The position numbers and the translations under genes were made by a program. This document shows positions 1-59,844 of a stretch of DNA of 59,846 nt, piece after piece (positions within the stretch are counted from its first letter, which is position 1; the number at the start of each line of letters is the position of its first letter). The stretch is from positions 1-59,846 of IMG/VR virus record IMGVR_UViG_3300030099_005700; one strand, 5' to 3'. The notes under the pieces are model-generated. The model did not search any database. It had not been told where the DNA came from and saw only the letters and a program-made list of their open reading frames with translations. The stretch is from a virus.

Positions 1-1
1 C

Positions 2-58
2 AAATCGATTGTGTCGCTTTGCCAGCGACACATCAAGAAGCTAGAAGACAAAGCCTAA
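2..58 (+). CDS. C-terminal fragment of the gene at 58912-59529 (repeat copy)
   Basis: The first 58 bases repeat the end of the gene at 58912-59529: 18 sense codons ending KKLEDKA and a TAA stop at 56-58. It is not a separate gene but the same coding end seen twice because the window overlaps itself. On a circularised map it should be merged with the right-hand gene. Confidence 0.9.
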   Translation, partial: KSIVSLCQRHIKKLEDKA

Positions 59-81
59 CCCTAACCCTGTCCCCCTAACCC
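59..81 (-). other. G-quadruplex-forming run, telomere-like
   Basis: Four C-runs (59-61, 65-67, 71-75, 79-81) are separated by three 3-nt spacers (TAA, TGT, TAA). The complementary strand therefore fits the G3+N1-7 quadruplex pattern with uniform 3-nt loops, very like vertebrate telomeric sequence. It overlaps the left arm of the terminator hairpin, so hairpin and quadruplex would compete. That a quadruplex forms is inference. Confidence 0.5.
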
Positions 82-106
82 TGAAAAGGGTTAGGGGGAC
101 TTTTTT
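69..106 (+). terminator. Rho-independent terminator
   Basis: A perfect 14-bp stem (69-82 with 87-100) is closed by a GAAA loop and followed by six T (101-106). It lies 11 bases after the stop codon of the gene that ends at 58 and is the natural terminator for the gene at 58912-59529. It isolates that gene from the early promoter at 424. Confidence 0.93.
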
Positions 107-147
107 GTGCCCTCGTCCCTGCATGGGGGCGCGGGCATTATTGTTTT

Positions 148-207
148 AGTCCGCGTGTCAGTCCGCGTGTCAGTCCGCGTGTCAGTCCGCGTGTCAGTCC
201 GCGTGTC
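148..207. repeat. Five tandem 12-bp repeats
   Basis: The unit AGTCCGCGTGTC occurs five times head to tail without mismatch, and passes directly into the next repeat family at 206. Nothing here codes. Perfect short iterons next to a terminator and ahead of the early promoter suit a replication origin, a packaging site or a binding array for a phage protein; which one is unknown. The copy near the right end lies at 59619-59678. Confidence 0.93.
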
Positions 208-272
208 AAACGTTTTACCAGATTCTCGTCAAACGTTTTACCAGATTCTCGTCAAACGTTTTACCAGATTCC
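206..272. repeat. Three tandem 23-bp repeats carrying AAACGTTT
   Basis: Two complete 23-bp units (206-228, 229-251) and a near-complete third (252-272) begin TCAAACGTTTTACC and end AGATTCTCG. Each contains the palindrome core AAACGTTT (208-215, 231-238, 254-261), the same core scattered between the early genes. That links this array to the same putative DNA-binding factor. Confidence 0.93.
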
Positions 273-339
273 CCGATCCCTGAATCCTGAACCCCGATCC
301 ATGATCCCTGTATTATTCAAAGACATAATTAAACCCTCG

Positions 340-372
340 TCCACACCTCGTCCACACCTCGTCCACACCTCG
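340..372. repeat. Three tandem 11-bp repeats
   Basis: The unit TCCACACCTCG is present three times. At the right end of the window the same array continues into a fourth unit when the contig stops, so its copy number is variable or was collapsed in assembly. The rest of 107-423 holds only a run of related CCTGAACCCCGATCC-like words at 271-310 and an AT-rich stretch before the promoter. I see no gene between 59 and 461. Confidence 0.9.
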
Positions 373-423
373 TTTATAGACCATAACTCGTTGAAACTAA
401 ATTTGTTACATAAAAGAAAACTA

Positions 424-15200: not shown

Positions 15201-18200
15201 ATTGAGAAAGGCCTTCTCTTTCTTTTTTAACTCCGAAACTCTGGGGTCTGAATCCCCATATTTCATAGCCTTTAGCCCTTCGTAACCTTTATACTTCCCT
15301 TTAGAAAAGACCCCCACGGGCAGCTCTAAGGTGTCGAACATACCTTGGAACCGCGCAATAATGTCTTCAGGAGTGGTATTCTCATCGATATCATTGAGAG
15401 ACGCGTCAAACCGACGGGTTATAACATCAAATCCAGCATTAGGATCACGCGGGTCAAAGGGCATGTGTCTGGCGCGAGCGGCACCCCCATTGGCCAAGAA
15501 CCTAAGCTCATGGGCCATACGGTTAATCATAACCGCCAACTCTGGATTATCTTTTTTGAGGTTATACCTAGCGGACATCCTACGGAATACCCCTGCAATG
15601 TACCGGAGCATTATGCGGAGAGTGCTTGGGCTAGATTCGTAAAATGCAATATCTTCTTGGGTAGTGTACCCACGAGTCACCCTCTTCAAGACACTGAGTA
15701 ACTTCTCACCCATGACTTGCCGCATAGTCTCTAAATCGTTGTCAGCAATACCTTGTTTAAGGGCAGCGCGTAACTCAGGGTTGCGGGTATATTCGTCTAT
15801 AAACTCGTTGAATTCTGTTTCACTAAACGTGTCAATCAGAGTATCCAGTTCCGCAAGGGGGATTGCTTTGAACTCTGCTATGTGCCCCAGCTCTTCAGCA
15901 ATAATGGAATCCATGATGCCTTTAAGGTGCAACTCGTTCTCGACTATTGCACTCTTAGCAAACAAAGTTCTCACTAGATTCTCCCGAATCACATAAATGA
16001 CGGGGACTCTCTCCCCGTCTTTCTCAACTACCACAGAAGCGAATGCTTCGTCAGGCCTACCTGAAAAAATATCTGGGGCATCGGCGGCAGTATCTACCAT
16101 CGACACTGCAACAGAAGGAGGGATACTACTCAAAGACTCTTCTACAAGTGCTTGGATTTCGGCCTCCTGTTCAGGAGTCATTTCCCCAGCTTCAATCCCG
16201 CCTTCAGAGCCAAAAGGACTGAACCTCGCCCCAGAGGGGGAAGTCCGCATAAAGTCGAGTTTCAATACATTTCGATAGCGGGACCGAGCCCTATCAATCC
16301 TATTATCCATGTCACCGAAGGGCGTGGTCTGCCCTTCAGCGTTCCCAAGATTAACAAAGTCTATCAAATTATCAAAAGCCTCGCGGAATTTGGCGTCCGC
16401 TCTGACCCCAAACAAATCCAAAATAGCATCGGCTATGCGGCGGAACAGGCTACGTTGTTTATCTTTAGGCTGTGTGCTTTTAAGCGTTCTTTGAAAAGTG
16501 GCTGACGAGAAGAACGTCGCCACAAACTCGTCGAGACTCCCCATAGCATGGTCAAACTCCAGATTTTCTGAAGCTTCGTTTCGGGACTGGGAAGAGATCT
16601 TGAACAAACCTTCTAGTCTCTTCTTAGCCCCGCGTTGTTTGGGGGTAAGCTCAGATTCTGGCTTGGCTAGAAGATCTACAGTGAAGGCATGTATATATTC
16701 GTGGAGAAGGACGGACTCTACCCCTTGACCATAAAACCCCGACAAGTTTATGCTGACCATCTGGGAACCATCTTCAAAGGTGGTGTGGTTCCCCGCAGAC
16801 CCATCTGGCACATCATATATAGAGAACTTGACGCGAGAAAGAAGCTCTGGGTTTCGTAGCAAAAGTTCAGCTACCAACCGATGCTGCCTGTTACGACTGG
16901 ACTTCGCAATCTTCTGCAAAGCGTCGATTACTGAAGAAGGGTCACCAGATTTTAAGCCCAATCTACTTACCACACTTTGGTTTTTGCGGCGGTAGTAATT
17001 GAACTTCTTCCCAAGGAAAATTGAGGGGGCATGGTTTACACCCAGCTTCGCGAGAACTTCTCTAGCGATGTCGTTAGTAAGTTCTGCCTTTCGGGGGCTG
17101 AACATAGGAACATACGATCTAAATATGTTTATGACATTCCAGTTTTGTTTCATCAAGACCTCTTCGGAGGCCACAGCCTTATTTAGACGCGCTACAAAAT
17201 CTGATGTTCTGTGGTTGACTCTAGCGACATTAAGGAGATGCTCAAAAATACGAGCGGGTTGGGTTTGTTCAAGAACATGGGGAGGGGCAGAATCGCCTTC
17301 AACGGCTACGACGACGCGCTTCAGCGCATCAGTAAAAAGGTTTTGTTCCCTAATAGTGTTGGGTCCGCGTGCCCTTAAGTAGTTCCTTACGTCTACCCGC
17401 ACAGACTCCACCGCATTCTCCATGTCAGCGGCATCGAGCATTGTGGCCTCCCGCCAAAGAGACTGGACTTCTTCTCCAGTAAGGTTCTCAACACCGAATT
17501 CTTGAATTTCAGGAATCGGCAGATCCTCTTTGTCTATATCTTGTTCAGCAGCTAGGTCTTGCTGATCAGCCTCAAATTCAGTTACAGTTTGTGAGGCGTC
17601 GAAAGAAATATTGGTGACATCTGGGAACAGGAGTGCCCGCCGACTAATAAGCCTCTGCCGAGCCCTATTACCTGCATCGCGAATTATAGCGTAAAGATCA
17701 ATTGTATCACCCTTAAGGTATTTTATATTGTCTCGTGCTTCTTTAGCAAAATATTGACGAATAGTTATTTCTGCCCAGTTATCAGCAAGAGTTCTAGAAG
17801 TAGGGGTGGTTGTAATTATAGGCCTGTCTTTACTATCAGGAAACCCATATTTCAGTAAGAAGGCCGCTTTGCTTTCGAGGCTGTTCGCGTCCTCTACGAC
17901 CAACCCGTCCTCCATCCGTCGGACTGGCACAGGGTTAGCAAACCTAGGAGGGGTATATGACACTATCTCTTCGAGATGCATATGCCCAGCTAGCGTTTCC
18001 GTTTCTATTTCAGGGTCAAGCTCAAGGACATCAAATGACTTCTCCCCTTCTGCAACTGTCCTCGTTCTAAGAGAACGGGAACCATAACCGGGGGCTAGCA
18101 TCGCTTTATGGAGGATTGTGTAAACTTCAGCTAAAGCCATAGCTCTAGCTGTTGTGTACTCCTCAAAGGAGACACCAGCTCCTTCACGGAAGGCCTTTAC

Positions 18201-21200
18201 ATTTAGTATCCGGCTTATCATGGAGCCAAGAGGGCTAGTCGTACTGCCAGTAACTATGCCCGTATACTCTTTCGCAAACAAAGCATTCAGGGGGGCGGTG
18301 GGTCCTCCTCTTTCTTTCCTGTCTCGCTCTGCGTCGAAAACTACCAATTGGTCCCCAACAGGCTCTCCTTTATTATTTGTCGGGCCCAATTGAGCATTAA
18401 GATAACTTGGGACAGCGTTCCGCTCAAAAGCCGCGTTTATCTTTAGGTGGCCCAACAAATATTTTGAAAGGTCAGACTGGAGGGTGTCTTTGTAAACTAT
18501 GGACCTTTTAGTAAATTCAAAACCCGCTACAGGGGCCTCGACATCTACAGCAAAAAATCTTTTTGTTTTCGTAAGGTCATCGAACTTTTCAACAACAGCA
18601 ATAGCTGGGTTGCCGATATACTCCCCATCTTTTATGTAAATATCGGGAACCCTTACCAGAACTTTCTCTTTTCTGAGTAATGCAGCAACGCTCGCAGGGT
18701 GGTTATTAAACACTCCAAAAGCTGTGTCGTGATGCCACTTAGTGTACCTTTTATCGTCTTTAGATTCCCCAGACAAATTTTTAGCCTGAGTATCAGTTAG
18801 GCCAACTGTTTTAGCTGCTTCAACTGCTTTAGCAATCGTGGGTACAGGGTAGCGCCTTTTAATACGGTTGTTAATCGTTAAGGTAAGAGCCTCTCTTGTC
18901 CACTTTCTAGTCTTTGGGCCAGCGTCGCCAAGTAATGTGGCGATTTTGAATGTAGCATCAGGGAACCCATAGGGGGTTTTTTTCGTTATATCCACTGGGA
19001 TGCCCGACCGGACATGTAAGTGTATAAGTTCGCGTATCCTGTCGCGCAAAACTCTGTCTGAGAATGAGTCAGGGCTTTCGGTGGCTTCTTCGGTGACTTC
19101 CGCGTCAATGCTATCGGGGTCATTATCAGCGGTGTCTTCGGGGGTATTAAACTCTTCGCGATATATTTTTTGAGACTCTTTAAATATGTCGTTTAGATGG
19201 GGCTCTAGCTCTTCTCTCGTGTAATCATTTTTGAAATCGGACAATAGCTGTTTCGTCCACGCGTCGAAGTTAGCTATTTTTCGGGCTATATATGCCGCTC
19301 CAATAATAGCTAAATCCGAAAGGGTCGTTGGGTCGAGGCCTAGATTAAAACGAGAACGTTTTTCGCGTAGGTTTCGTCTGGCTTGTTCAGCCTTCTTTTC
19401 CATTCTTTGGGCGAAAGCTTCTACCTTAGATATTTCTGAAGTCTCGTCTGTTTCTACAACAACATCGGCCTCCTCACGGGCTTGGGCAATGTCTTCAGCA
19501 ACAGCCTTCAAGGCTTCCACGGCGTCTTCAGAATCCAAACCTGCTGCATTTGCGTTGTCAGAAAACTCGTTCAGGTCATCCTCTGTTATTACAAGCTCTT
19601 CTTCTGCTTCAGCGGCGGCTACTCCCTCCTCTTGCAGCTCCTGCTCTTGTTTTACTTTAGGGGACAGTTCAAAAGTAAGAGCCTGAATAACGCCCTCATG
19701 GGCTTCGGTAACCCACTCGCTAAACGGCTTATCGGTGACGTTTTTTATTTTCGTGGCTTTGCCACCAAATATTAAACCGACAGGGTCTCCTTGGGGCCCT
19801 ACTGTCTTGGATTTTTTAACGGTAACCCCCAAGGCCTTTAATTTTTTGTTAAGCGTTGCTAGAGTAAGCTCCCCTTTAGGGGGGTTTTTGAGGAGCTTAT
19901 CCTTTTGCTTTTGCAAAGCCTCTACAATCAAGCTGTGTTCTGCTTCTGAGACCTCTGTCTTAGAAGATGAAGCAATGAAGGGGGTAGTGGCATATTTTAC
20001 TTTATTCTCTAAAAGACGTTGATACAGGTCGGCTGGGAGTTCTGATTTAAGAGCCGCTAGTTGGTTGGTGTTCAGAGAGGGCATAGACCCCTCTGCCCCT
20101 GCTACTTCAGGTGACTGGATCCAAAAGCCCCCCACGGTCCTTTGGAGAGTCGTTGGTTTTCGCACCATCCTCTTACCTCTTTGCGTGGTAAACCCAAATC
20201 GTCCGTAGAACTCTTTTAGTTTTTCTTTAGATGGCCCACCCTTAAACGCTTGTACATCAAGGGTAATGCGAGTGCCAGTTGCGTCTGCGATTTCAGCAAG
20301 GCGGGCCATAATCGCAGTGCCCGCCCCTTGCTGTTGTAGCGTAGGCGCAACTTTGATAACATCGAGGTGGACTGTTTTTCCGCTAGTCTTTCGGAGGTCT
20401 ATCAACTCTGACGCTGTGGGGGCCGTGGCACGTTGACGTTCTCCCCCCGTTTGTAGCCTCAATTGAGGCAGTTGTTTAGTCTCTGCCTCATACATTTCCA
20501 TGAAACCCTCAGATCCTGACTTCTGAGTTTCGGGAGTACGGGATTCAGGTGCTGCGTCTTCATCGTCTTTCCTCTCTCGTGCTTCTGCTTCTGCTGCCTC
20601 TTCTCTTTCCAGTGCTTCTACTGTAATTAGGTCTGAAGGATCTAGGTCTGGTCTAGTAAGCACTTGCGCAGAAAGATCTTTGAAGTAGTCCTCTATTTCG
20701 ATAGGGGTCGGAACCCTAACCTGAGGCACAGGTATTATCTGACCTCCTTCACGGCCAGAGGTTCTGATTATTTCTTCCTCAGCAGCGGCTCCATGTTGTT
20801 CGGGAGTCGCTTTAGATACGGCGTCTACTATTTGATCCGCTGCGTCTTTCTTGATTATGTCCCAAGCCTCGTTGATCTCCTGCATTACTTGCTCCGCTTC
20901 AGGAGCAGGATTCACATCAGGGTGATTTGTACGTACTAAATTCCGGTAAGCAGCTTGTATCTGAGCAAAAGTAGCGCCCACAGCCACGCCTAAACGGGCA
21001 TAGGCTTCAACAACATTTTGGGGTTTTTCTCTTTCCTCAACAGGGGTGATCTCAGATGGTTCGGTTTGCTCTTGGGTTTGCTCTTGGGTTTGCGCGGGTT
21101 CTCGTGGGCCACTTCGGTAAAAGGGGTCGGTGGCTCTTTCTGGGTCGATGTTTGCCCTTTCCCTTTCGTCCATGATGTCCTCAATAGCATCTGCTGTCGC

Positions 21201-23723
21201 AGGACTGTCTAGATCTCTTAATTTCTGGCCAGCTTCTCTGGCGCGTTGTGTATTTATCTCCTCCGCTATTCGTGTGGCCACCTCTCTTTTAGCCGCCCTC
21301 TCACTAGTAACAGCCGACCCCCGTGCGGCACGGCCCAATGTGTCTCTAAAGAGAGGCATGCCCAAGCCAAAGGCTCCCCCATAAGCAGCAGCAATATAAG
21401 CGCCCGTGACTCGATCTGTGAAGGGCATGTCTTCTCCAGTGAACCCCGTCTGAATGAAGCTATTGATGAATTCATCCAGTCCTTCTTCTAAAGCCTCGTC
21501 AGCAAAATTTTTCCCGTAACGAAGCATCGCATTTGTAGGGACAAATTCTTTCCAAGATCTTTTAATCCCCTCTGCGGATATTTTTGCTAAAGCCGCGTCA
21601 TAGACATCATCGGGTAATTGCCCTAGTTTCTGGATACTAGATCTGTGAGCAACCGTGTTGGCGACAGTGCGTTTAAGCTGTTCCCTTACTTGGGAAGTAC
21701 TAGCGCGACCAATAATAAAATCTTCTACACCGCCCATTCCAATGGCGCGGAAACCTAAAACAAGACCCCCTGTAACAACAGACGCCATGAGCCCAGCCCC
21801 CAGAGCCTTCTGGTGTCTTTCTTCAGACGGCATATCATCAGGCAAAGCACTGTAAACAGAAGCGTAAGTCATGCCTCCACTGCGGGTCGCAGCAGGCACA
21901 AACATGGCGGGGTAAAGCGTAGAATTCTTGGCTACTACTTGATTGTACTTTTTGATGACATCCACCGCAGTGGCTTTCTCGAAAGCTTCTCTCGTGGCCT
22001 CATTGGCAAAACTTTTTTTCTTCTTACCAAAAGATACAATGAGGTCTTTCGCTACAAGACGTTCGGCAGCTTGCTCTGCGGTTTCTAGCGCACCCCCAAT
22101 CGTTTTTCTTTTCAAGGAACCTGCAAGAATACCTGTAGCTATTCCTTTGGTAGTAAGTTTTGCTCCGGTTTTAAGGCCAAGATAACCCGCTCCACCTACA
22201 CCAGTAGTTGTTGTTAAGGCTGCTGTAGCAGTAAGGTCAACGGCTACAGGGGCGATCATGGAGGAAAGAGTCGTAACCCAGCCTACCTTGTCCCCCATCA
22301 TGTTTGCTAACCGCGCCCGCGCAGCACGGTCCCTCTGATTTTTAATAAGTGTATCTTGGGCGAGTTTGTTTGGCTCGCCATCAAAACTTGTAGCGGCTAC
22401 CCCCAAAGCAGCCACTGTATCAGTAAAGGCGTCTGGCACAGACCTCAGGACCGACCCTACGAACTCATTCCTAAACTCATTGTAATCATTGTTCTCAAAA
22501 AACTCGTCAAAAATTTCGGACTCTTCTTTACCATCGAGCAAGCCTTGGGCGACTGCCTCATTCCATTTAGAAGACAGGTATGTCCTGTTTATGACTTCAT
22601 TAAAGTCATTGAACATAGCACCATTAAGCCTGTTGCGACGTCGTAGTCTTAGCTTCTCTTTTTGCGGACCAGAGTAATCTTTAATGGCTTCTTCGAACAA
22701 AGACTTCTTGGCAAGGAGATCGCCATGCATGACCATGTCGCCATAGCCGTAAGTCCGAACATTGTTTGAAAGATTGCCCTCATCAAAGCGAATAACTCCC
22801 GACGACATAGCCATTTCCCCGACCATGTAATCCACAGCGGCGAAGCGGTCTTTTAAAGGAATACGTGAGGTATCAGGAAACAAGTACTCAAGCTCTTCTA
22901 CTACGTCCGCACGAAGTTCTTCGTTCAAAGACACATTGACCCGATCATCAGGAACGCCGAGCCTCTGTGCATAACGATGCATCGCACCTGTCAAGGATTC
23001 TGTGTCTTGGTCACTTCCAAGTGCAGTGTTTATCGCAAGAATAGCGTCTTCATAATGGGCACGTTTGTGTAAGGGAACCCCGCTATCCTCAAAGGGGGTC
23101 ATCGCTTGTTGTACCCCCCGTATGTCACGAGCATTAAGGAACCCCGCATCTACACTTTGCTTGTAAGCTTCGTAAGGGGTAAGACCATCAGCAGCAGGAC
23201 CACTCTTTAAATAATAACCACCATCAGGCCTAGCAACGCGGACAAACGGAGACCCTCCATCAGAGCGGATCTTATCTACAGCATCCTCATAATATTTATC
23301 GACCATAGCCGAAGCTTCTCCAAAAAGAGCTTCTTCTTGAGCCAGATAGTTTGGATCGGCGTCCCCCTTATTTTTTATTTTTATAAAAGCGTTATATGCC
23401 CTGATTGGATCCCCATCATCAGAACGGGGGTCTATGACATTCGCTCTAGATACAGCCTGAGCTTTTTCTTCATAAGAAGGGGAGTAATCCCTACTAAAGG
23501 CCTCATTTATCTGATCTGCCGTTAGCCCACTACCCCCCTCATCAGTAGGGGTTGCCAAAGCTTGCCCCAAGTTCCGGTCAATTATCCCCGCTATTTCATC
23601 ACTATATTTCCCATCTTTGAAATAAGATTCTCGTATGTAATCCGCGTGGGCGATTCTACGATCAACGGGGTCATCTAGGTCACTAGTGAGTGACCAATCA
23701 TCGAATTTTACAAGCTCAGACAC
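12159..23723 (-). CDS. Giant polyvalent virion protein (J domain, GNAT-like, zincin, LPD38-like)
   Basis: 3854 residues from a GTG start; about a fifth of the genome. Three hydrophobic Gly/Ala-rich segments (about residues 478-540, 632-668, 765-805) could span a membrane. A J domain follows, with HPD at 934-936. A GNAT-like domain has QQQGAGTA near 1129. A zincin motif HEYIH lies at 2341-2345, with a downstream EFVATF that could supply the third ligand. A related segment near 2610 reads EELGH, lacking the first His. The C-terminal region (about 3280-3560; SEYASVVTPFLRFKTEVFR) resembles LPD38 of polyvalent proteins. Likely packaged in the capsid and injected with DNA: inferred from size, hydrophobic segments and the virion-gene neighbourhood. 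Confidence 0.85.
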   Translation of the reverse strand: MSELVKFDDWSLTSDLDDPVDRRIAHADYIRESYFKDGKYSDEIAGIIDRNLGQALATPTDEGGSGLTADQINEAFSRDYSPSYEEKAQAVSRANVIDPRSDDGDPIRAYNAFIKIKNKGDADPNYLAQEEALFGEASAMVDKYYEDAVDKIRSDGGSPFVRVARPDGGYYLKSGPAADGLTPYEAYKQSVDAGFLNARDIRGVQQAMTPFEDSGVPLHKRAHYEDAILAINTALGSDQDTESLTGAMHRYAQRLGVPDDRVNVSLNEELRADVVEELEYLFPDTSRIPLKDRFAAVDYMVGEMAMSSGVIRFDEGNLSNNVRTYGYGDMVMHGDLLAKKSLFEEAIKDYSGPQKEKLRLRRRNRLNGAMFNDFNEVINRTYLSSKWNEAVAQGLLDGKEESEIFDEFFENNDYNEFRNEFVGSVLRSVPDAFTDTVAALGVAATSFDGEPNKLAQDTLIKNQRDRAARARLANMMGDKVGWVTTLSSMIAPVAVDLTATAALTTTTGVGGAGYLGLKTGAKLTTKGIATGILAGSLKRKTIGGALETAEQAAERLVAKDLIVSFGKKKKSFANEATREAFEKATAVDVIKKYNQVVAKNSTLYPAMFVPAATRSGGMTYASVYSALPDDMPSEERHQKALGAGLMASVVTGGLVLGFRAIGMGGVEDFIIGRASTSQVREQLKRTVANTVAHRSSIQKLGQLPDDVYDAALAKISAEGIKRSWKEFVPTNAMLRYGKNFADEALEEGLDEFINSFIQTGFTGEDMPFTDRVTGAYIAAAYGGAFGLGMPLFRDTLGRAARGSAVTSERAAKREVATRIAEEINTQRAREAGQKLRDLDSPATADAIEDIMDERERANIDPERATDPFYRSGPREPAQTQEQTQEQTEPSEITPVEEREKPQNVVEAYARLGVAVGATFAQIQAAYRNLVRTNHPDVNPAPEAEQVMQEINEAWDIIKKDAADQIVDAVSKATPEQHGAAAEEEIIRTSGREGGQIIPVPQVRVPTPIEIEDYFKDLSAQVLTRPDLDPSDLITVEALEREEAAEAEARERKDDEDAAPESRTPETQKSGSEGFMEMYEAETKQLPQLRLQTGGERQRATAPTASELIDLRKTSGKTVHLDVIKVAPTLQQQGAGTAIMARLAEIADATGTRITLDVQAFKGGPSKEKLKEFYGRFGFTTQRGKRMVRKPTTLQRTVGGFWIQSPEVAGAEGSMPSLNTNQLAALKSELPADLYQRLLENKVKYATTPFIASSSKTEVSEAEHSLIVEALQKQKDKLLKNPPKGELTLATLNKKLKALGVTVKKSKTVGPQGDPVGLIFGGKATKIKNVTDKPFSEWVTEAHEGVIQALTFELSPKVKQEQELQEEGVAAAEAEEELVITEDDLNEFSDNANAAGLDSEDAVEALKAVAEDIAQAREEADVVVETDETSEISKVEAFAQRMEKKAEQARRNLREKRSRFNLGLDPTTLSDLAIIGAAYIARKIANFDAWTKQLLSDFKNDYTREELEPHLNDIFKESQKIYREEFNTPEDTADNDPDSIDAEVTEEATESPDSFSDRVLRDRIRELIHLHVRSGIPVDITKKTPYGFPDATFKIATLLGDAGPKTRKWTREALTLTINNRIKRRYPVPTIAKAVEAAKTVGLTDTQAKNLSGESKDDKRYTKWHHDTAFGVFNNHPASVAALLRKEKVLVRVPDIYIKDGEYIGNPAIAVVEKFDDLTKTKRFFAVDVEAPVAGFEFTKRSIVYKDTLQSDLSKYLLGHLKINAAFERNAVPSYLNAQLGPTNNKGEPVGDQLVVFDAERDRKERGGPTAPLNALFAKEYTGIVTGSTTSPLGSMISRILNVKAFREGAGVSFEEYTTARAMALAEVYTILHKAMLAPGYGSRSLRTRTVAEGEKSFDVLELDPEIETETLAGHMHLEEIVSYTPPRFANPVPVRRMEDGLVVEDANSLESKAAFLLKYGFPDSKDRPIITTTPTSRTLADNWAEITIRQYFAKEARDNIKYLKGDTIDLYAIIRDAGNRARQRLISRRALLFPDVTNISFDASQTVTEFEADQQDLAAEQDIDKEDLPIPEIQEFGVENLTGEEVQSLWREATMLDAADMENAVESVRVDVRNYLRARGPNTIREQNLFTDALKRVVVAVEGDSAPPHVLEQTQPARIFEHLLNVARVNHRTSDFVARLNKAVASEEVLMKQNWNVINIFRSYVPMFSPRKAELTNDIAREVLAKLGVNHAPSIFLGKKFNYYRRKNQSVVSRLGLKSGDPSSVIDALQKIAKSSRNRQHRLVAELLLRNPELLSRVKFSIYDVPDGSAGNHTTFEDGSQMVSINLSGFYGQGVESVLLHEYIHAFTVDLLAKPESELTPKQRGAKKRLEGLFKISSQSRNEASENLEFDHAMGSLDEFVATFFSSATFQRTLKSTQPKDKQRSLFRRIADAILDLFGVRADAKFREAFDNLIDFVNLGNAEGQTTPFGDMDNRIDRARSRYRNVLKLDFMRTSPSGARFSPFGSEGGIEAGEMTPEQEAEIQALVEESLSSIPPSVAVSMVDTAADAPDIFSGRPDEAFASVVVEKDGERVPVIYVIRENLVRTLFAKSAIVENELHLKGIMDSIIAEELGHIAEFKAIPLAELDTLIDTFSETEFNEFIDEYTRNPELRAALKQGIADNDLETMRQVMGEKLLSVLKRVTRGYTTQEDIAFYESSPSTLRIMLRYIAGVFRRMSARYNLKKDNPELAVMINRMAHELRFLANGGAARARHMPFDPRDPNAGFDVITRRFDASLNDIDENTTPEDIIARFQGMFDTLELPVGVFSKGKYKGYEGLKAMKYGDSDPRVSELKKKEKAFLNASEKLSNAKIAAFQKIRERYPQIDEALISKATGSSENVIVDPDFRQELRESYWSWRKDLKAKVEAGDAEATEFTRENIKAKYRELVVDPMRKERERLQEQVRKDINAAQENIRQIAPDLAESILELRLLLDAFSLVMKKTFGLEGKVMAKVESQVGIYLTRQYRVFEEEGFRDRIMSDKTTEAFTEAYEYMRRQWIRTQAKKIRAKARNEGESMTVEESLEKSKQELEQASDTGRDPIHAMMSTYLKAMEKRTKGEAYRLPKGVGRSLLNNLRRREQVPPPLQKLMGVYGPEEGINNLARSLTVVAEMTAKQAYFNNLAELGAPKSDTDEDAFVFTHEQLTNRPELDPESYVNMRTGEAYVYGDKVQATTELESTYDQTYNYYIHEDMFDDLKRMYSPDIAESNLSTSKQKLASFGEGLRLLTGAALTAKTLGSVTFYMRNVLGNLFFFAPAQGFGPVSMARIATRSTVIGRAIKDPKAFDEYYAELTGLNVIGQDLYSSLIRDLLKKPKNVSSVLKEIESLNKIVEKSKGLSDKVIKPVMERLQALSQSVDAFYKIGYYELEKENLLKAKQWDIDNNTDSIDANAPAGYRSLSDYDLKYLAAQKVRRTSQSYADAYHLVEKIGKSEYASVVTPFLRFKTEVFRILENTYKLARQEMKSTNPVVRLRGVRRISGVSTVILGVSAGLPTLLAHLAGVGEEEDELLRGSSPEYKRFNTFWYNPQSLLGIKSKELRSWDMTFVNPFAIGVDPLLRFSEHAFRGNSERGFEEAFGSLMQTFMDENIFLSSVVDVSRNVRSDTGGPIAEKGEGALGFAKKLGYVFSEAYAPRTPTKLAQAAYQALYAGASPDPAKSAKALLIGEITPVKPYKYDPETHYLRYLQRARDERNRASSLRNILKSKGQLSEGQIRRSIRKWIKVRREVDQRIYSSYIGAQGLGLTPQQARRVMSEKALGMGKRRQSYIVRGRRERDVLPTPFIEQVIGLTPDGVVGKQRLRIALDEIRKSGPRIQVLETID

Positions 23724-41117: not shown

Positions 41118-41278
41118 TTTTTAAGAATGCGATAGAGTGAAGCCAGCCCCACAGCGATGCCCACGATGAGCGACCCCACTCGTAGCCAGTATTCGAACTG
41201 CTCCTGCATACTTGTGATCAGCCCAATGACGGGTGCTGCCATTCCGATTAAAGAATCAAATATTCGGGTGTTGATCAT
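41114..41278 (-). CDS. 54-residue membrane protein, holin candidate
   Basis: MINTRIFDSLIGMAAPVIG... with one C-terminal membrane segment (VGSLIVGIAVGLASLY) and a basic end (RILKK). Starts overlapping the previous stop and ends overlapping the amidase ATG, so it is translated with the endolysin. Holin or holin-regulator role is inferred from position and size. Confidence 0.72.
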   Translation of the reverse strand: MINTRIFDSLIGMAAPVIGLITSMQEQFEYWLRVGSLIVGIAVGLASLYRILKK

Positions 41279-41499
41279 TTGTCGCTCCCAATAATAACCG
41301 CACGGCGGTATGAGTAGTCGCTGTGAAACTTGTGGTCTTTCCGACCCACCAAACTACCTTCGCAGAAATCATACGTTTTCCCCTCGATCAGAGTGATCGT
41401 CGGAGGATCGTACAAGGCGCTTGCGTTCGCGGTCGATGCGTTGGGCAACTCGTTCCATGAGCAACTTGCTAGCGGGATCACCAATAGATGCGAGAGCAT
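41275..41499 (-). CDS. Small lipoprotein, outer spanin candidate
   Basis: 74 residues from the ATG at 41499, preceded by GGAAG at good spacing; an ATG at 41559 would give 94. The start MLSHLLVIPLASC has a lipobox (LASC) and predicts lipidation at that Cys. The coding region overlaps the 41369-41602 gene out of frame, the nested architecture of Rz/Rz1 spanins. Likely anchored in the outer membrane and helping to disrupt it. Confidence 0.65.
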   Translation of the reverse strand: MLSHLLVIPLASCSWNELPNASTANASALYDPPTITLIEGKTYDFCEGSLVGRKDHKFHSDYSYRRAVIIGSDK

Positions 41500-41602
41500 C
41501 AAGACGATCTTCCAAGGCGTCGAGATGTCTGTCTCTTTGCAGTCGCACATATTCAACATAGGCTTGAAGAGCAGCAGTTAGCAGTTGGAAGAATGTCTTC
41601 AC
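41369..41602 (-). CDS. Small coiled-coil protein, inner spanin candidate
   Basis: 77 residues from a GTG overlapping the previous stop (GTGA). A moderately hydrophobic N-terminus (FFQLLTAALQAYVEYV) is followed by a heptad-rich region (LDALEDRLDALASIGDP, MERVAQRIDRERKRL). This could be an Rz-like inner-membrane protein with a periplasmic coiled coil; the weak membrane segment makes that uncertain. Confidence 0.6.
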   Translation of the reverse strand: MKTFFQLLTAALQAYVEYVRLQRDRHLDALEDRLDALASIGDPASKLLMERVAQRIDRERKRLVRSSDDHSDRGENV

Positions 41603-50544: not shown

Positions 50545-51909
50545 CTATGCGGCGGCGGTATTAGTGTCGCGCTTGAAGATGACAACGTATCCGAAGCTGG
50601 TCTTAATTGGCTTCGATGCGCTGGCCATGATTCCCCGGAAGAAACCAATTGTGCCATCAGGATTGTAAGTGGCGTCGGGGATGTTAGTCCACTTGAAGTC
50701 GCCCTTATAATTGACGGGGTCGAAGGTGATTCCGTTGCCACCAGTGAGCGGTGCAGGGATCAGGGACTCCATGACGTTGTCAACAAGGACATAAGCGGCT
50801 TCAAACTCAGCACTTTCGTAATCTGCGTTCGGGACAACAACTCCACCAGATACAGTATAAGGATCGACTCTGACGAGAGTGTTTGCCTCTCCTCCGCGAC
50901 TCTTATAACGAGTGGTGAGATCGTCGACCAAGTGGTAGAAACCCCTGAAGCTTTTCTCAACACCAAGAGGTGCAATCAGTTCGCCAACTCGTGCATTGTT
51001 GTAACGCACATCATCGCGGAACTCAGCCTCAGTCTGAAGCTGGTAAGAAGCCTCAGAAGAAAGGACTACCGAGAAGATTGGGCGACCGTTCTCACGACCG
51101 TAGGCGTTGGTACCTGCACCAGCGCGAACAAGCTTAAAGTAAATCTTGTCCATGATGGCGTTGGAGATGTTAGCATCAGGCTCCAGTTCTCCAGTTCCGT
51201 CTCCTCCGGGCTCCGGAGGATCAAGGTCACCAGTCTTTACGGTAGACCCAGCTTGTGCCAAACCATCGGTAGTGTCTTCTACGAACGACTGCTTGTCCTC
51301 TACAGAAGAGATAAAGGTCGTGCTAGCAGACTTACAAAGAACGCAGTTATCAGCAAGGCGGTCATACTCGTCGCGGTAGCGATTTTCCCAGCTATGACGG
51401 ACAGACTCCTTGAGGAGGTCCATGATAGCGCGGAGCTGATCGGTACGATGAGCAGCATAACGAAGATCTTCAACATTGATCTTCGGGGACTCGACCGTAG
51501 CCTTTTTCAGGCTGTATTTCTTGAGTACCTGAGAGAAGTCAATTTTAGAAGTGCCTTCGTCACCAGTGTTACGAACATCCTCAATCTGACCATCGGTGAA
51601 GCCAGTCCTGCTGGAGGCTACAGCCGAAAGATTGATAGTATTCCAATTAAGTCCCAAAACGGGGGTCGCGTTCAACGCGCCACTCTTAAGTGGAAGTGCC
51701 CTATCGTAAACGAGGGTGTTGAGTTGATAGCCCATCCCGTCAGGGAAAGTGCTTTGTTTAACAAGGTCAATCCACGGGGAAGTGTGGAGAGTTGACTTGT
51801 GAATATCGTTACCGATGCGATTAGCTTCCTGAGTCAGGATAACGTTAATTGCATTGGCGTCATTTGCAAAAGTGCCGTCTGGAAGAGCGGCATTGGTTGA
51901 AACTCCCAT
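50545..51909 (-). CDS. Major capsid protein
   Basis: 454 residues from the ATG at 51909 (MGVSTNAALPDG); an ATG at 51954 adds 15 hydrophobic residues and is less likely. Features expected of an HK97-fold capsid protein: a helical N-terminal part, an RATDQ-like helical spine (YAAHRTDQLRAIMDLLKESV), beta-rich C-terminal half (FGYVVIFKRD). Identified mainly by position after scaffold and by its own promoter and terminator. I assign it as capsid by context, not by a diagnostic motif. Confidence 0.78.
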   Translation of the reverse strand: MGVSTNAALPDGTFANDANAINVILTQEANRIGNDIHKSTLHTSPWIDLVKQSTFPDGMGYQLNTLVYDRALPLKSGALNATPVLGLNWNTINLSAVASSRTGFTDGQIEDVRNTGDEGTSKIDFSQVLKKYSLKKATVESPKINVEDLRYAAHRTDQLRAIMDLLKESVRHSWENRYRDEYDRLADNCVLCKSASTTFISSVEDKQSFVEDTTDGLAQAGSTVKTGDLDPPEPGGDGTGELEPDANISNAIMDKIYFKLVRAGAGTNAYGRENGRPIFSVVLSSEASYQLQTEAEFRDDVRYNNARVGELIAPLGVEKSFRGFYHLVDDLTTRYKSRGGEANTLVRVDPYTVSGGVVVPNADYESAEFEAAYVLVDNVMESLIPAPLTGGNGITFDPVNYKGDFKWTNIPDATYNPDGTIGFFRGIMASASKPIKTSFGYVVIFKRDTNTAAA

Positions 51910-52000
51910 TGTATTAGATAGTAAAGTTAAGGAAAAAAAGACCCTTTCCCCCATTGTGGGGCCAAAGAATCAAACGAAGATGTAGGTGAATCCCGCTTCC

Positions 52001-52097
52001 TAGAACTATTTACATGGCTAGAGCAACCAGCAGTATTCGGGTAAGAGAGGCAAAGCTCTGGAGATGACGCGTAGAACTATTTAAGGCTAGAGCAACC
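52001..52097. repeat. Direct repeats in the capsid leader
   Basis: TAGAACTATTTA...GGCTAGAGCAACC occurs at 52001-52028 and 52072-52097, about 70 bp apart, in the 200-base leader between the capsid promoter and its start. GCTAGAG/GCTCTAG words also recur at 52161, 52287 and near 52730. They may be binding sites or leader structures tuning capsid expression. Confidence 0.7.
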
Positions 52098-52117
52098 TGT
52101 CATCTGTTATTTTTGGA

Positions 52118-52145
52118 TTATTACGTAAATCCTTAATTATGTCAA
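52118..52145 (-). promoter_or_regulatory. Capsid promoter
   Basis: On the - strand TTGACA (52140-52145), 16-bp spacer, TAATAA (52118-52123). It lies about 210 bases upstream of the capsid start, between it and the reversed lipoprotein cassette. A separate promoter for the most abundant protein makes sense because the scaffold operon is terminated before the capsid gene. Confidence 0.7.
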
Positions 52146-52195
52146 CCAGAGATTTATTCTGCTCTAGCTGCCTTAAGGGTGTATAACTCAAACAC

Positions 52196-52282
52196 ATGAT
52201 AGATCAAGACCCAACATTGGTGGCTATGCTGATAGTTTCAATAATTTTCCTAGTAGCCATAGCGAAAAGTCTGGACATGTGA
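52196..52282 (+). CDS. 28-residue membrane peptide (candidate)
   Basis: MIDQDPTLVAMLIVSIIFLV then AIAKSLDM: an acidic N-terminus and one membrane segment. It opens the + strand cassette within the - strand virion operon. A TATAAC box at 52182-52187 would put the transcription start nearly on its ATG. Very short, so only composition and context support it. Confidence 0.45.
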   Translation: MIDQDPTLVAMLIVSIIFLVAIAKSLDM

Positions 52283-52308
52283 TTTCGCTCTAGATAAAAG
52301 GCGGAGTT

Positions 52309-52518
52309 ATGAAACAAACATTATTCGTAATCGCGGCGGGATGCACCTTAGCAGTGTCTTCCTGCTCTACGATGGACTTGGGCGGGTCAGTACCTCTCCC
52401 ATTCACTGAGCCATCAACTTCAGCAAAGTTGGACCTTAATCTTCGACCGATGCCCCCGCGATTTTGTATTGGGGTGGACCTCGTTCCGACAGAAGAAGAA
52501 ACCCCTGAATCAGAATAA
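52309..52518 (+). CDS. Small lipoprotein in a reversed moron-like cassette
   Basis: 69 residues: signal MKQTLFVIAAGCTLAVSSC with a lipobox ending at Cys19, then a Pro/Thr/Glu-rich mature region (DLGGSVPLPFTEPSTSAKLD) and an acidic end. GGCGGAG precedes the ATG. It would be exported and anchored in the membrane. Reversed orientation, its own terminator and the lipoprotein signal fit a superinfection-exclusion or host-surface modifying moron; alternatively a stray outer spanin. The opposite-strand frame here is a shadow. Confidence 0.72.
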   Translation: MKQTLFVIAAGCTLAVSSCSTMDLGGSVPLPFTEPSTSAKLDLNLRPMPPRFCIGVDLVPTEEETPESE

Positions 52519-52521
52519 GTC

Positions 52522-52593
52522 ATGGCCTACGGAAACCCAAAACCAAAACCCAAGCCTAAGCCAACAAAGCCCAAAACAAAGGGCGGCTACTAA
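52522..52593 (+). CDS. 23-residue Pro/Lys peptide
   Basis: MAYGNPKPKPKPKPTKPKTK then GGY. The ATG follows the lipoprotein stop by three bases in the TAAGTCATGG start context. Such short Pro-Lys-rich peptides with a Gly-Tyr end occur in marine phages. It ends before the terminator at 52616. Function unknown. Confidence 0.6.
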   Translation: MAYGNPKPKPKPKPTKPKTKGGY

Positions 52594-52615
52594 TGTAACC
52601 CGCTTGGCAAACCAG

Positions 52616-52653
52616 AAAAACCCGCTTCGTTGCTCATGCGAAGCGGGTTTTTT
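52616..52653. terminator. Bidirectional terminator
   Basis: Five A, a 9-bp GC-rich stem (52621-52629 with 52639-52647) and six T. It ends the + strand lipoprotein cassette and, read the other way, the - strand scaffold operon. It lies between two converging units: a typical economical arrangement. Confidence 0.9.
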
Positions 52654-52699
52654 GTGTCGATCAAATCGACATGACCTTAGAACATGTCGATGTAAGGCC

Positions 52700-52807
52700 T
52701 TATCCTAGACACGACGCTAGAGCCGAAAAAACAAAATATAAAGTTATAGTGATAACAGCCCCCCACACAAAGGCTAGAAAAACGTAGAAAGGCCTACGAT
52801 CTCGCAT
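52700..52807 (-). CDS. 35-residue membrane microprotein after scaffold
   Basis: MRDRRPFYVFLAFVWGAVIT and so on: a basic N-terminus, a long membrane segment, and LASC at the end. ATG lies two bases after the scaffold stop, so it is coupled with scaffold translation. Unlisted small frame; supported by composition and context. Role unknown, perhaps lysis timing or membrane targeting of procapsids. Confidence 0.55.
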   Translation of the reverse strand: MRDRRPFYVFLAFVWGAVITITLYFVFSALASCLG

Positions 52808-52809
52808 CA

Positions 52810-54018
52810 CTAACTTCCTAGAGCGGCATTGATGCTATCCTCAAAGCTCATCTCACTCGTGACCCCTGCTGGAGTGGCAGAACTTTTGGTCTGCCCTGAC
52901 ATTGCAGGTTCTGCGGTCTCATAATCCGCAAGACGGTCAGTCAAAAGTTCGTTTTCTTTCCGCATCGACATATAGGCTTTGACGATATTGGGGAGAAGCT
53001 GGGCAGACACAGCATTAAAAGCGTGGTCTACAGGGTGGATTACAGAAGGATCATTTTCTGCGGCTTTAGTCTGGATTGCCTCCATATCTAAATCTTCCAA
53101 ACCAGAAAGAAAAGGTAGCTTTTGTTGCACTCTTTCAACAACATTTCGGGTTACATTAGCCCGCAACTTCGCTTTTTCTGCCGCCATTTGGGCATGCTCT
53201 TGCTCTTCTAGGGCTTTCGCTTCGCTCAAAGCGGCTTCAGCATTCTCAAGAAGATACTGCCGTCTCTCAACTATAGGTTCAACTTCTTCTATAATCCGAT
53301 AAATCTTGGCTTTGTCCCTATCGCTGGCGTCAGCGAGCAACTCATCAAGCTGCTCATCCTGTTGTTCAGGATCATCAAGGGCCAAAACGTCAACAAGAGC
53401 ATCAGGATCGACATTATATTTGTCCGCAATCTGGTCGGCCTGTTCCATTAAAGACGACAAAGGCTCAGTAATAGCCTCTCGGTAGGCGTTTGTAGACTCT
53501 AAATCAGACAACATCTGGCGTTGTTCAAACTCAGCGACTCTGCTTTGGAGTTGTTCTATATCTTTATTTTCAGTCAGGCCCGTTAGCTCTTTGATTTTAG
53601 CTTCATTTATCTGTTGTTGTTGCCGTAGGGCCTCTAACTCAGACTTACTAGACTTTAACTCAGACTTCAGTTGCTTGAATCGGGATGCAGCTTTCGGGGT
53701 CCAATCGTCCCCTATATCCTCAGTAAGAGCCTCAATCGGTTCTTCCCCGCCAGATTCTTCAGCGGCTGGCTCCTCAGCAGCAGGTTCTTCAGCGGCTGGC
53801 TCCTCAGCAGCAGGTTCTTCAACGGGTTCTTCAGCAGCAGGTTCTTCAGCAGCAGGTTCTTCAGCAGAGTCAGACGGTTCTGCATTAAAATTAGCAAAAG
53901 CTGCCTCTAAAGAATCCTCAAAAGAGAGGTCTCCAGCCCCTGCATCCGGCAGAGCTTCAATGTTTACTCCTGCCTCCTCTGCGGGGGCCTCGGCTACGGA
54001 TTCTGTATGTGGTTCCAT
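52810..54018 (-). CDS. Capsid scaffolding protein
   Basis: 402 residues, highly acidic. AAEEP repeats occupy residues about 53-90, followed by a long coiled coil (KQLKSELKSSKSELEALRQQ) and a helical C-terminal half. The N-terminal SFEDSLEAAF recurs as SFEDSINAAL at the C-terminus. Length, acidity, coiled coil and place just before the capsid gene are those of scaffolding proteins, which guide procapsid assembly and exit. The start overlaps the preceding gene by 25 bases. Confidence 0.85.
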   Translation of the reverse strand: MEPHTESVAEAPAEEAGVNIEALPDAGAGDLSFEDSLEAAFANFNAEPSDSAEEPAAEEPAAEEPVEEPAAEEPAAEEPAAEEPAAEESGGEEPIEALTEDIGDDWTPKAASRFKQLKSELKSSKSELEALRQQQQINEAKIKELTGLTENKDIEQLQSRVAEFEQRQMLSDLESTNAYREAITEPLSSLMEQADQIADKYNVDPDALVDVLALDDPEQQDEQLDELLADASDRDKAKIYRIIEEVEPIVERRQYLLENAEAALSEAKALEEQEHAQMAAEKAKLRANVTRNVVERVQQKLPFLSGLEDLDMEAIQTKAAENDPSVIHPVDHAFNAVSAQLLPNIVKAYMSMRKENELLTDRLADYETAEPAMSGQTKSSATPAGVTSEMSFEDSINAALGS

Positions 54019-58911: not shown

Positions 58912-59529
58912 ATGGAAAAGACCATACATCACACCACAGATAGCTCCCCTTTCGGGGAGGATGAGTTGGCAAAGATCAAGCCTTATGCCCCTCGACTGAA
59001 GGAAATTGCAAAGGCTTCTGACAAGCTTACCGATGAGCTTGCCCTTCTCCGCTCCAAGATGCGGGCGGACGGGTTAGACGATCGGAAAGTTTGCCTCTTC
59101 TGCAAGATCTCCTCCGGAGTTCTCGCAGCTTCCGACTACAAGGTCCCCTTCGCCCCTGAGGCAATGGAACTGACCTTGCAGGACGCTAAGGCGCGGAAGC
59201 TTAAGAAGACGCCTACCGTGCCGAATTTCAAGTTTCTTGGCACTGCCAAGGAACTGAAGACGGCGATTGCTCTTGCGAAAGAGCGCACCAGCGCCACGGG
59301 TCCCAGCGACCTTCCTGCCGACAAGGCGGGCGAAATGCTGGCGCTTGTTAAGGCTGGCGAAAAGCCCAAGCCTAAGGACAAGAGCGGTGCTGGCGAGGTT
59401 AGCGCCCTTGGCCGGATCGAATCTGACATCGCTAATGCGGTTGGAGATGAGAAACTGGATCTTGCCGGACTCAAATCGATTGTGTCGCTTTGCCAGCGAC
59501 ACATCAAGAAGCTAGAAGACAAAGCCTAA
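58912..59529 (+). CDS. Early-type protein, function unknown
   Basis: 205 residues, Lys/Ala-rich with a helical centre (LDDRKVCLFCKISSGVLAAS contains CLFC, a possible metal-binding pair) and a charged tail. Not recognised. Its ATG is preceded by CCAAGTGAT, no Shine-Dalgarno sequence. On the circular map it lies just before the terminator and repeats, upstream of the early promoter, and its end is duplicated at 1-58. Confidence 0.7.
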   Translation: MEKTIHHTTDSSPFGEDELAKIKPYAPRLKEIAKASDKLTDELALLRSKMRADGLDDRKVCLFCKISSGVLAASDYKVPFAPEAMELTLQDAKARKLKKTPTVPNFKFLGTAKELKTAIALAKERTSATGPSDLPADKAGEMLALVKAGEKPKPKDKSGAGEVSALGRIESDIANAVGDEKLDLAGLKSIVSLCQRHIKKLEDKA

Positions 59530-59844
59530 CCCTAACCCTGTCCCCCTAACCCTGAAAAGGGTTAGGGGGACTTTTTTGTGCCCTCGTCCCTGCATGGGGG
59601 CGCGGGCATTATTGTTTTAGTCCGCGTGTCAGTCCGCGTGTCAGTCCGCGTGTCAGTCCGCGTGTCAGTCCGCGTGTCAAACGTTTTACCAGATTCTCGT
59701 CAAACGTTTTACCAGATTCTCGTCAAACGTTTTACCAGATTCCCCGATCCCTGAATCCTGAACCCCGATCCATGATCCCTGTATTATTCAAAGACATAAT
59801 TAAACCCTCGTCCACACCTCGTCCACACCTCGTCCACACCTCGT
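59472..59844. repeat. Direct terminal repeat, right copy
   Basis: Identical to 1-373. It includes the gene end (to 59529), the terminator (59540-59577), the 12-bp repeats (59619-59678), the 23-bp repeats (59677-59743) and the 11-bp repeats from 59811. After 59844 the sequence continues the 11-bp repeat (TCC) where the left copy has TTT. Confidence 0.95.
59540..59577 (+). terminator. Rho-independent terminator (repeat copy)
   Basis: The second copy of the 14-bp GAAA-loop hairpin and T6 described at 69-106, directly after the 58912 gene. Confidence 0.93.

What the first reader, a model, noticed from the sequence alone, without database searches (positions are those of the whole stretch)
52196..52653. 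Reversed lipoprotein cassette between scaffold and capsid
A + strand set (membrane peptide, lipoprotein with lipobox, Pro/Lys peptide) is inserted against the direction of the virion operon, with a terminator shared by the scaffold operon, while the capsid gene has its own promoter. This is moron-like. A phage lipoprotein encoded there suggests superinfection exclusion or surface remodelling.
Basis: partly seen in the sequence, partly recalled or inferred. Interest (0 to 1): 0.65.

Follow-up and report, generated by a model that had tools for sequence, protein, structure and literature searches.

The report
Roaming phage lipoprotein cassette beside capsid
A complete, uncultivated phage carries a small, self-contained gene cassette for a membrane-anchored lipoprotein that sits in different places in related phages and probably blocks the phage's receptor, and next to it the capsid messenger RNA begins with two copies of a previously uncatalogued folded RNA.

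Summary
On the + strand, between scaffold and capsid, lie a 28-aa membrane peptide, a 69-aa lipoprotein, a Pro/Lys peptide and a perfect 14-bp bidirectional terminator. The lipoprotein is under strong purifying selection (dN/dS 0.06-0.21) and about half of the related records surveyed have it (36 of 72). The cassette is moron-like: 16 related records carry it upstream of the portal gene, a close relative carries it behind the giant virion gene, and its terminator travels with it. Superinfection exclusion, as by T5 Llp or Rtp45, is the best functional guess but is untested and without sequence homology. The o-spanin alternative is weakened by a separate Rz/Rz1-like pair at 41.3 kb.

The capsid's own promoter is also real and conserved across the family. 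It starts an mRNA whose first ~115 nt are two tandem copies of a hairpin with a near-invariant GGUUGCUCUNGCC..AA.NAGUUCUA core inside strongly covarying stems. Nearly all close relatives have it, only before this capsid gene, and it matches no Rfam 15 family. This candidate cis-regulatory RNA is the more novel part. Its function is unknown; 5'-end stabilisation, put-like antitermination and a protein or ligand operator are the candidates.

The parts
52196..52282 (+). 28-aa single-span membrane peptide, MIDQDPTLVAMLIVSIIFLVAIAKSLDM; no clear ribosome-binding site
   Evidence: Homologous 28-aa ORFs at the same spacing in L082, L083, L084, L085, L086 and L089. No such ORF in L088, L090 and L091, where the end of the gene (CTGGACA) directly follows the promoter.
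52309..52518 (+). 69-aa lipoprotein, lipobox VSS-C19; mature 51 aa, 5.5 kDa, pI 4.2; conserved VPLPFT-P and PP(K/R)FCIG(L/V)D motifs
   Evidence: 21-member alignment A1, invariant C19, P31, F32, P49, P50, C53, G55, D57; dN/dS 0.06-0.21; no Pfam, PHROGs, NCBIfam, PADLOC or PDB match.
52523..52594 (+). 23-aa Pro/Lys-rich peptide, MAYGN(PK)n...GGY
   Evidence: MAYGK-type K/P-rich peptide at the same place in L085, L088, L090 and L091; not found in L082-L084, L086, L089.
52616..52652 (.). bidirectional intrinsic terminator, shared by the cassette (+) and the scaffold operon (-)
   Evidence: Perfect 14-bp inverted repeat; z -4.9 and -4.7 on the two strands; a similar terminator with GTCGAT trailer follows the cassette at other sites.
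52117..52145 (-). sigma-70 type promoter of the capsid gene, TTGACA-17-AATAAT
   Evidence: 11 of 12 matches. In relatives the -10 ends mostly 14-21 nt before the hairpin core; mean score 8.5 against 6.5 for random segments.
52060..52108 (-). first copy of the capsid-leader hairpin, at the predicted 5' end of the capsid mRNA
   Evidence: Covariance model R1, 61.4 bits; MFE fold agrees; covariation.
51988..52042 (-). second copy of the capsid-leader hairpin
   Evidence: R1, 38.1 bits. Folded alone its energy is not below shuffles (z -0.03).
50545..51909 (-). major capsid protein (likely start ATG at 51909)
   Evidence: Relatives in IMG/VR at 39-82% identity; predicted fold best matches N4-type coat proteins.
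52810..54018 (-). Glu/Ala/Pro-rich, coiled-coil-like protein upstream of capsid, presumed scaffold
   Evidence: Position and composition only; conserved with the capsid in relatives.

Best explanation
The insert is an accessory transcription unit (membrane peptide, lipoprotein, Pro/Lys peptide, terminator) that has moved as a block between intergenic sites of the virion gene region in an uncultivated phage family. In this genome it landed between the scaffold terminator and the capsid promoter, facing away from the capsid (shown by comparison). The lipoprotein is most likely exported, lipidated and held at the inner face of the outer membrane, where its short conserved mature part binds the phage's own receptor protein and stops further particles, or newly released progeny meeting debris, from adsorbing (inferred). 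It is not a regulator of the capsid gene: the capsid keeps its own promoter and structured leader with or without the cassette (shown).
For: Conserved three-part order in relatives. Purifying selection. Site changes: opposite strand upstream of portal in 16 records, scaffold-capsid gap in the window, L002, L057, L012, L014, L035 and L062, behind the giant virion gene in L085. Terminator and trailer travel with it. Half of the surveyed records lack it. Small size and lipid anchor match characterised exclusion lipoproteins Llp and Rtp45 (PMC9586334, PMC12685063). The genome has a separate lysis region with its own overlapping Rz/Rz1-like pair. The RNA leader and promoter precede the capsid in relatives without the cassette.
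Against: No sequence similarity to any known exclusion lipoprotein was found. The structure prediction is poor (pLDDT 60). No + strand promoter is evident in the window. In L085 and several class-B genomes the gene lies on the late-operon strand, so it may be made late there, whereas T5 Llp is made early. The host is unknown, so neither the receptor nor even the outer membrane is established.
Confidence: 0.42

Rival explanations
1. The lipoprotein is an outer-membrane spanin (Rz1-like) or another lysis factor working with the 28-aa membrane peptide.
For: Short, Pro-containing lipoprotein next to a membrane peptide; in L085 it lies at the end of the late operon, consistent with late expression.
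Against: The membrane peptide has no room for the periplasmic coiled coil of an i-spanin and is missing in L088, L090 and L091. The lipoprotein has no C-terminal membrane span. The genome has a separate lysis region with endolysins and an overlapping coiled-coil/lipoprotein pair at 41275-41602.
Confidence: 0.13
2. It is a host-envelope effector of another kind, such as a receptor or outer-membrane modifier or a defence against other phages, not exclusion of the same phage.
For: Patchy presence, roaming position and strong constraint suit any accessory advantage gene; the conserved FCIG motif could be a binding site for a host protein.
Against: No match in PADLOC, PHROGs, NCBIfam or Pfam; no enzymatic motif.
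Confidence: 0.3
3. For the neighbouring capsid leader: the tandem hairpins act mainly as a 5' mRNA stabiliser and strong translation leader, like the T7 gene 10 leader (comparison from memory).
For: The hairpin lies at the predicted transcript start. The 60 nt before the capsid ATG are enriched in TTAACTT (18% against 0.6% genomic) with no excess of Shine-Dalgarno motifs.
Against: Pure stabilisation needs no invariant internal loops or conserved duplication; the core is nearly invariant while stems change freely.
Confidence: 0.35
4. For the capsid leader: a put-like antiterminator RNA that modifies the transcribing RNA polymerase to read through the long virion operon.
For: HK022 putL is two stem-loops directly behind its promoter, about 70 nt, with base pairs starting at A3 (PMC9378689); the position here is the same.
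Against: put has two different stem-loops, here one motif is repeated; no sequence comparison with put was made; no antitermination data.
Confidence: 0.25

Closest known systems
Superinfection-exclusion lipoproteins Llp (phage T5) and Rtp45 (phage Rtp)
   Same: Very small phage lipoprotein with short mature part (Rtp45 about 6 kDa, here 5.5 kDa).
   Different: No detectable sequence relation; Rtp45 has a Cys30-Cys38 disulfide, here the mature protein has one conserved Cys besides the lipidated one; target receptor unknown; no functional data.
Moron / accessory gene cassettes in phage late regions
   Same: Self-contained unit with terminator, against the operon direction in the window, patchy and in variable sites.
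   Different: Not compositionally foreign; found, as far as searched, in one uncultivated phage group; promoter unclear in the window.
Two-component spanins Rz/Rz1
   Same: Short lipoprotein beside a membrane peptide.
   Different: Partner lacks a periplasmic domain, and a better overlapping candidate pair exists at 41.3 kb.
HK022 putRNA and T7 gene 10 leader (for the capsid leader RNA)
   Same: Stem-loops at the very start of a phage transcript; T7 gene 10 is also the capsid gene (from memory).
   Different: Here one motif with a near-invariant internal-loop core is repeated in tandem; no Rfam match.

Membership tests
Superinfection-exclusion lipoprotein (Llp/Rtp45 type) | small lipoprotein with signal peptide and lipobox | tested here: met
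   Lipobox Cys conserved in 21 members; mature 51 aa. By pattern, no signal-peptide predictor was available.
Superinfection-exclusion lipoprotein (Llp/Rtp45 type) | homology to a characterised exclusion lipoprotein | tested here: inconclusive
   tblastn in 50,697 phage records at E up to 1 gave only two weak Rhizobium phage hits; no PDB chain by profile. Short proteins can hide homology.
Superinfection-exclusion lipoprotein (Llp/Rtp45 type) | binds the receptor and blocks adsorption | not testable with these tools
   Needs expression and adsorption assays.
Two-component spanin | partner i-spanin with membrane span and periplasmic coiled coil, adjacent or overlapping | tested here: not met
   The neighbour is 28 aa and missing in L088, L090 and L091.
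Unimolecular spanin | lipoprotein with C-terminal membrane span | tested here: not met
   The 51-aa mature part has no hydrophobic span and is acidic, pI 4.2.
Moron cassette | patchy presence and variable position in related phages | tested here: met
   36 of 72 surveyed records; three kinds of site.
Moron cassette | own terminator | tested here: met
Moron cassette | own promoter | tested here: inconclusive
   TTGACT-17-TATATT in L084 and L089, TTGACC-17-TATATT in L086; nothing above background in the window.
Moron cassette | base composition different from the genome | tested here: not met
   GC 0.466, within the 5-95% range 0.426-0.536 of 399-bp stretches.
Any Rfam 15 family (capsid leader RNA) | match to the family's covariance model | tested here: not met
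   No match to the leader hairpins in the window or L017 with E up to 5, apart from chance hits elsewhere.
put-type antiterminator RNA | two stem-loops directly downstream of the promoter | tested here: met
   PMC9378689.
put-type antiterminator RNA | suppresses termination through RNA polymerase | not testable with these tools
   Needs an in vitro or reporter assay.

The most novel reading that the evidence does not exclude
The tandem hairpins at the start of the capsid mRNA are a new class of structured RNA: a duplicated motif with a near-invariant internal-loop core that specifically binds a phage protein, host factor or the transcribing RNA polymerase and thereby sets the level or timing of capsid production. 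Its presence as one tandem pair per genome, always before the same gene, would make it a dedicated capsid-dosage switch across a large uncultivated phage family.
Probability: 0.45. Interest if true: 0.75.

Novelty: new member of a known kind. Interest (0 to 1): 0.52.

Why it matters
The lipoprotein family is undescribed and small enough to test directly: it would extend receptor-blocking exclusion lipoproteins beyond E. coli siphophages, and it shows such a gene moving among sites within virion gene modules. The adjacent capsid leader gives RNA biologists a sharply defined, strongly covarying motif with one location per genome and an obvious reporter gene. It was noticed only because the insert beside it was compared across relatives, which suggests that leaders of phage structural genes deserve a systematic look.

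Tried and rejected
Spanin reading: rejected as the leading idea (partner too short, separate Rz/Rz1-like pair). Homology searches for the lipoprotein in Pfam, PHROGs, NCBIfam, PADLOC, PDB and 50,697 phage records found nothing useful. AlphaFold of the lipoprotein was uninformative. Reading the duplicated 26-28 bp element as a bare promoter or DNA-binding repeat was rejected: spacing inside the motif varies by several nt, the flanking stems covary (score 0.508 against 0.142 shuffled, 0 of 500; sliding the partner drops it to about 0.12 or less), and G-U pairs outnumber A-C pairs 50 to 13 (p = 3e-6; in 72 clusters p = 2e-4), which points to RNA of the capsid sense. tRNA and Rfam explanations were negative. 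The pattern search in genome assemblies gave 7 stretches; two (Clostridia, Shimazuella) have no capsid and are probably chance. No named phage relatives: capsid, terminase candidate and portal candidate have no tblastn match in the phage collection. Literature searches found no description of this motif, in an open-access library only.

Full report
Setting. The window is a whole virus record of 59,846 bp with 373-bp direct terminal repeats, so probably a complete genome. Capsid, large terminase candidate and portal candidate have no tblastn match in 50,697 phage records, but the capsid has over 80 relatives among IMG/VR contigs. The predicted capsid fold is low in confidence (pLDDT 55); its best structural matches are N4-type coat proteins (Foldseek E 0.0097; Z 12.1 over 243 residues at 5.4 A). 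'Scaffold' and 'portal' are position-based names.

Observation. The + strand cassette is as described: membrane peptide 52196-52282, lipoprotein 52309-52518, Pro/Lys peptide 52523-52594, and a perfect 14-bp inverted repeat with T runs on both strands at 52616-52652. The capsid promoter TTGACA-17-AATAAT lies at 52145-52117 on the - strand.

The lipoprotein is a real, constrained family. Relatives range from 84% to 28% identity; the lipobox Cys, the PF and the PP..C.G.D residues are invariant in 21 sequences. Pairwise dN/dS where measurable is 0.06-0.21. In six relatives a homologous 28-aa membrane peptide lies about 113-136 nt upstream, and in four a MAYGK peptide follows. In L088, L090 and L091 the membrane peptide ORF is absent, with the end of the gene (CTGGACA) right behind the promoter, so the peptide is dispensable.

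The cassette moves. Of 43 capsid-bearing records, 20 have the lipoprotein; adding 29 further motif-bearing records gives 36 of 72. Records may be fragments, so this is a lower bound. In 16 records it lies on the opposite strand just upstream of the portal candidate. In the window, L002 and L057 it lies in the scaffold-capsid gap against the operon; in L012, L014, L035 and L062 in that gap along the operon. In L085, whose contig carries a portal 89% identical to the window's (L137), it follows the 3' end of the giant virion gene. L002 and L003, with capsids about 80% identical to the window's, carry it in different places. The terminator and a GTCGAT-containing trailer accompany the cassette at other sites. 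Some relatives show a + strand promoter, TTGACT-17-TATATT, 12-14 nt before the membrane peptide ATG; the window shows none above background.

Function of the cassette. Everything beyond export and lipidation, which are themselves read from the sequence, is inference. [quoted passage not shown]). PMC9586334 notes that small size seems to be a common feature of exclusion proteins. A spanin role is less likely because the genome has, at 39.6-41.8 kb, an amidase, a lysozyme-like protein, small membrane proteins and an overlapping out-of-frame pair (coiled-coil-like 77 aa at 41369-41602, lipoprotein 94 aa at 41275-41559) that looks like Rz/Rz1.

What the comparison exposed: a structured capsid leader. 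Aligning the scaffold-capsid gaps showed an element on the capsid strand, present twice, 52-81 bp apart in most relatives. Its core is GGUUGCUCUNGCC, a short variable loop with a conserved AA, then NAGUUCUA. The N-N pair appears as A-U, G-C, C-G and U-A. The flanks form a stem, mostly 5-12 bp, whose sequence differs in almost every genome (mean stem score 5.9 against 3.05 with shuffled partners, maximum 3.47 in 200). A covariance model finds 124 copies in the loci, as a rule two per genome (one in G020 and G039) and only before the capsid, in 31 of 32 whole records (four extra hits at E 0.2-0.5 are chance level). Counting pairs on 94 distinct copies: 83% of cells paired, 288 double changes, covariation score 0.508 against 0.142 in shuffles (0 of 500) and about 0.12 at most when slid. 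The alignment was fitted to the model, which favours the structure, but the independent scan agrees. G-U far exceeds A-C in the stem (50 to 13), so the capsid-sense RNA is the structured molecule. An exact-pattern scan of 2.9 million viral contigs gave 93 stretches; wherever enough downstream DNA is held, this capsid gene follows within about 110-275 nt. Rfam 15 has no such family.

Position of the leader. In most relatives a TTGACA/TATAAT-type promoter ends 14-21 nt before the first core, so transcription should begin at or just before the first stem. A third, less regular hairpin follows in many relatives, then an A/U-rich stretch enriched in TTAACTT with no Shine-Dalgarno excess. The more distant capsid clade (L064-L079) lacks the motif but has its own conserved leader of about 200 nt. 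The leader is present with or without the lipoprotein cassette, so the two are neighbours, not parts of one system.

Verdict. The capsid leader RNA is the more novel result and is supported by covariation, promoter position and strand bias, while its mechanism is open.

Noticed in passing
window 51988-52108 (-) and loci L002-L063, L080-L191: Tandem structured RNA motif at the 5' end of the capsid mRNA, strongly covarying, no Rfam 15 match; outside the coordinates of the finding.
   Followed up: yes
L064-L079, about 230 nt upstream of the capsid: A distant capsid clade has a different, very conserved capsid leader of about 200 nt with a TTGACA promoter; no Rfam match in L064. Capsids there are 90-99% identical, so conservation alone says little.
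   Followed up: partly
window 41275-41602 (-): Overlapping out-of-frame coiled-coil-like ORF (77 aa) and lipoprotein ORF (94 aa), an Rz/Rz1-like spanin candidate next to the amidase.
   Followed up: partly
window 12159-23723 (-): Giant 3854-aa virion-type protein with a DnaJ domain (E 4e-12) and a weak GNAT-like stretch.
   Followed up: no
window 1210, 1565, 2798, 3494, 6641: Palindrome GTTAAACGTTTAAC repeated five times in the early region, possibly an operator.
   Followed up: no
window 52700-52810 (-): 36-aa membrane peptide ORF directly behind the scaffold gene (TAGTGATG overlap); similar small hydrophobic ORFs seem to precede the capsid promoter in L029 and L111.
   Followed up: no
window 52024-52824: GCTCTAG, part of the RNA core, occurs six times here out of 13 in the whole window, including just upstream of the membrane peptide and lipoprotein; may be chance.
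   Followed up: no
window 1-373 and 59472-59844: Exact 373-bp direct terminal repeat, indicating a complete genome.
   Followed up: yes
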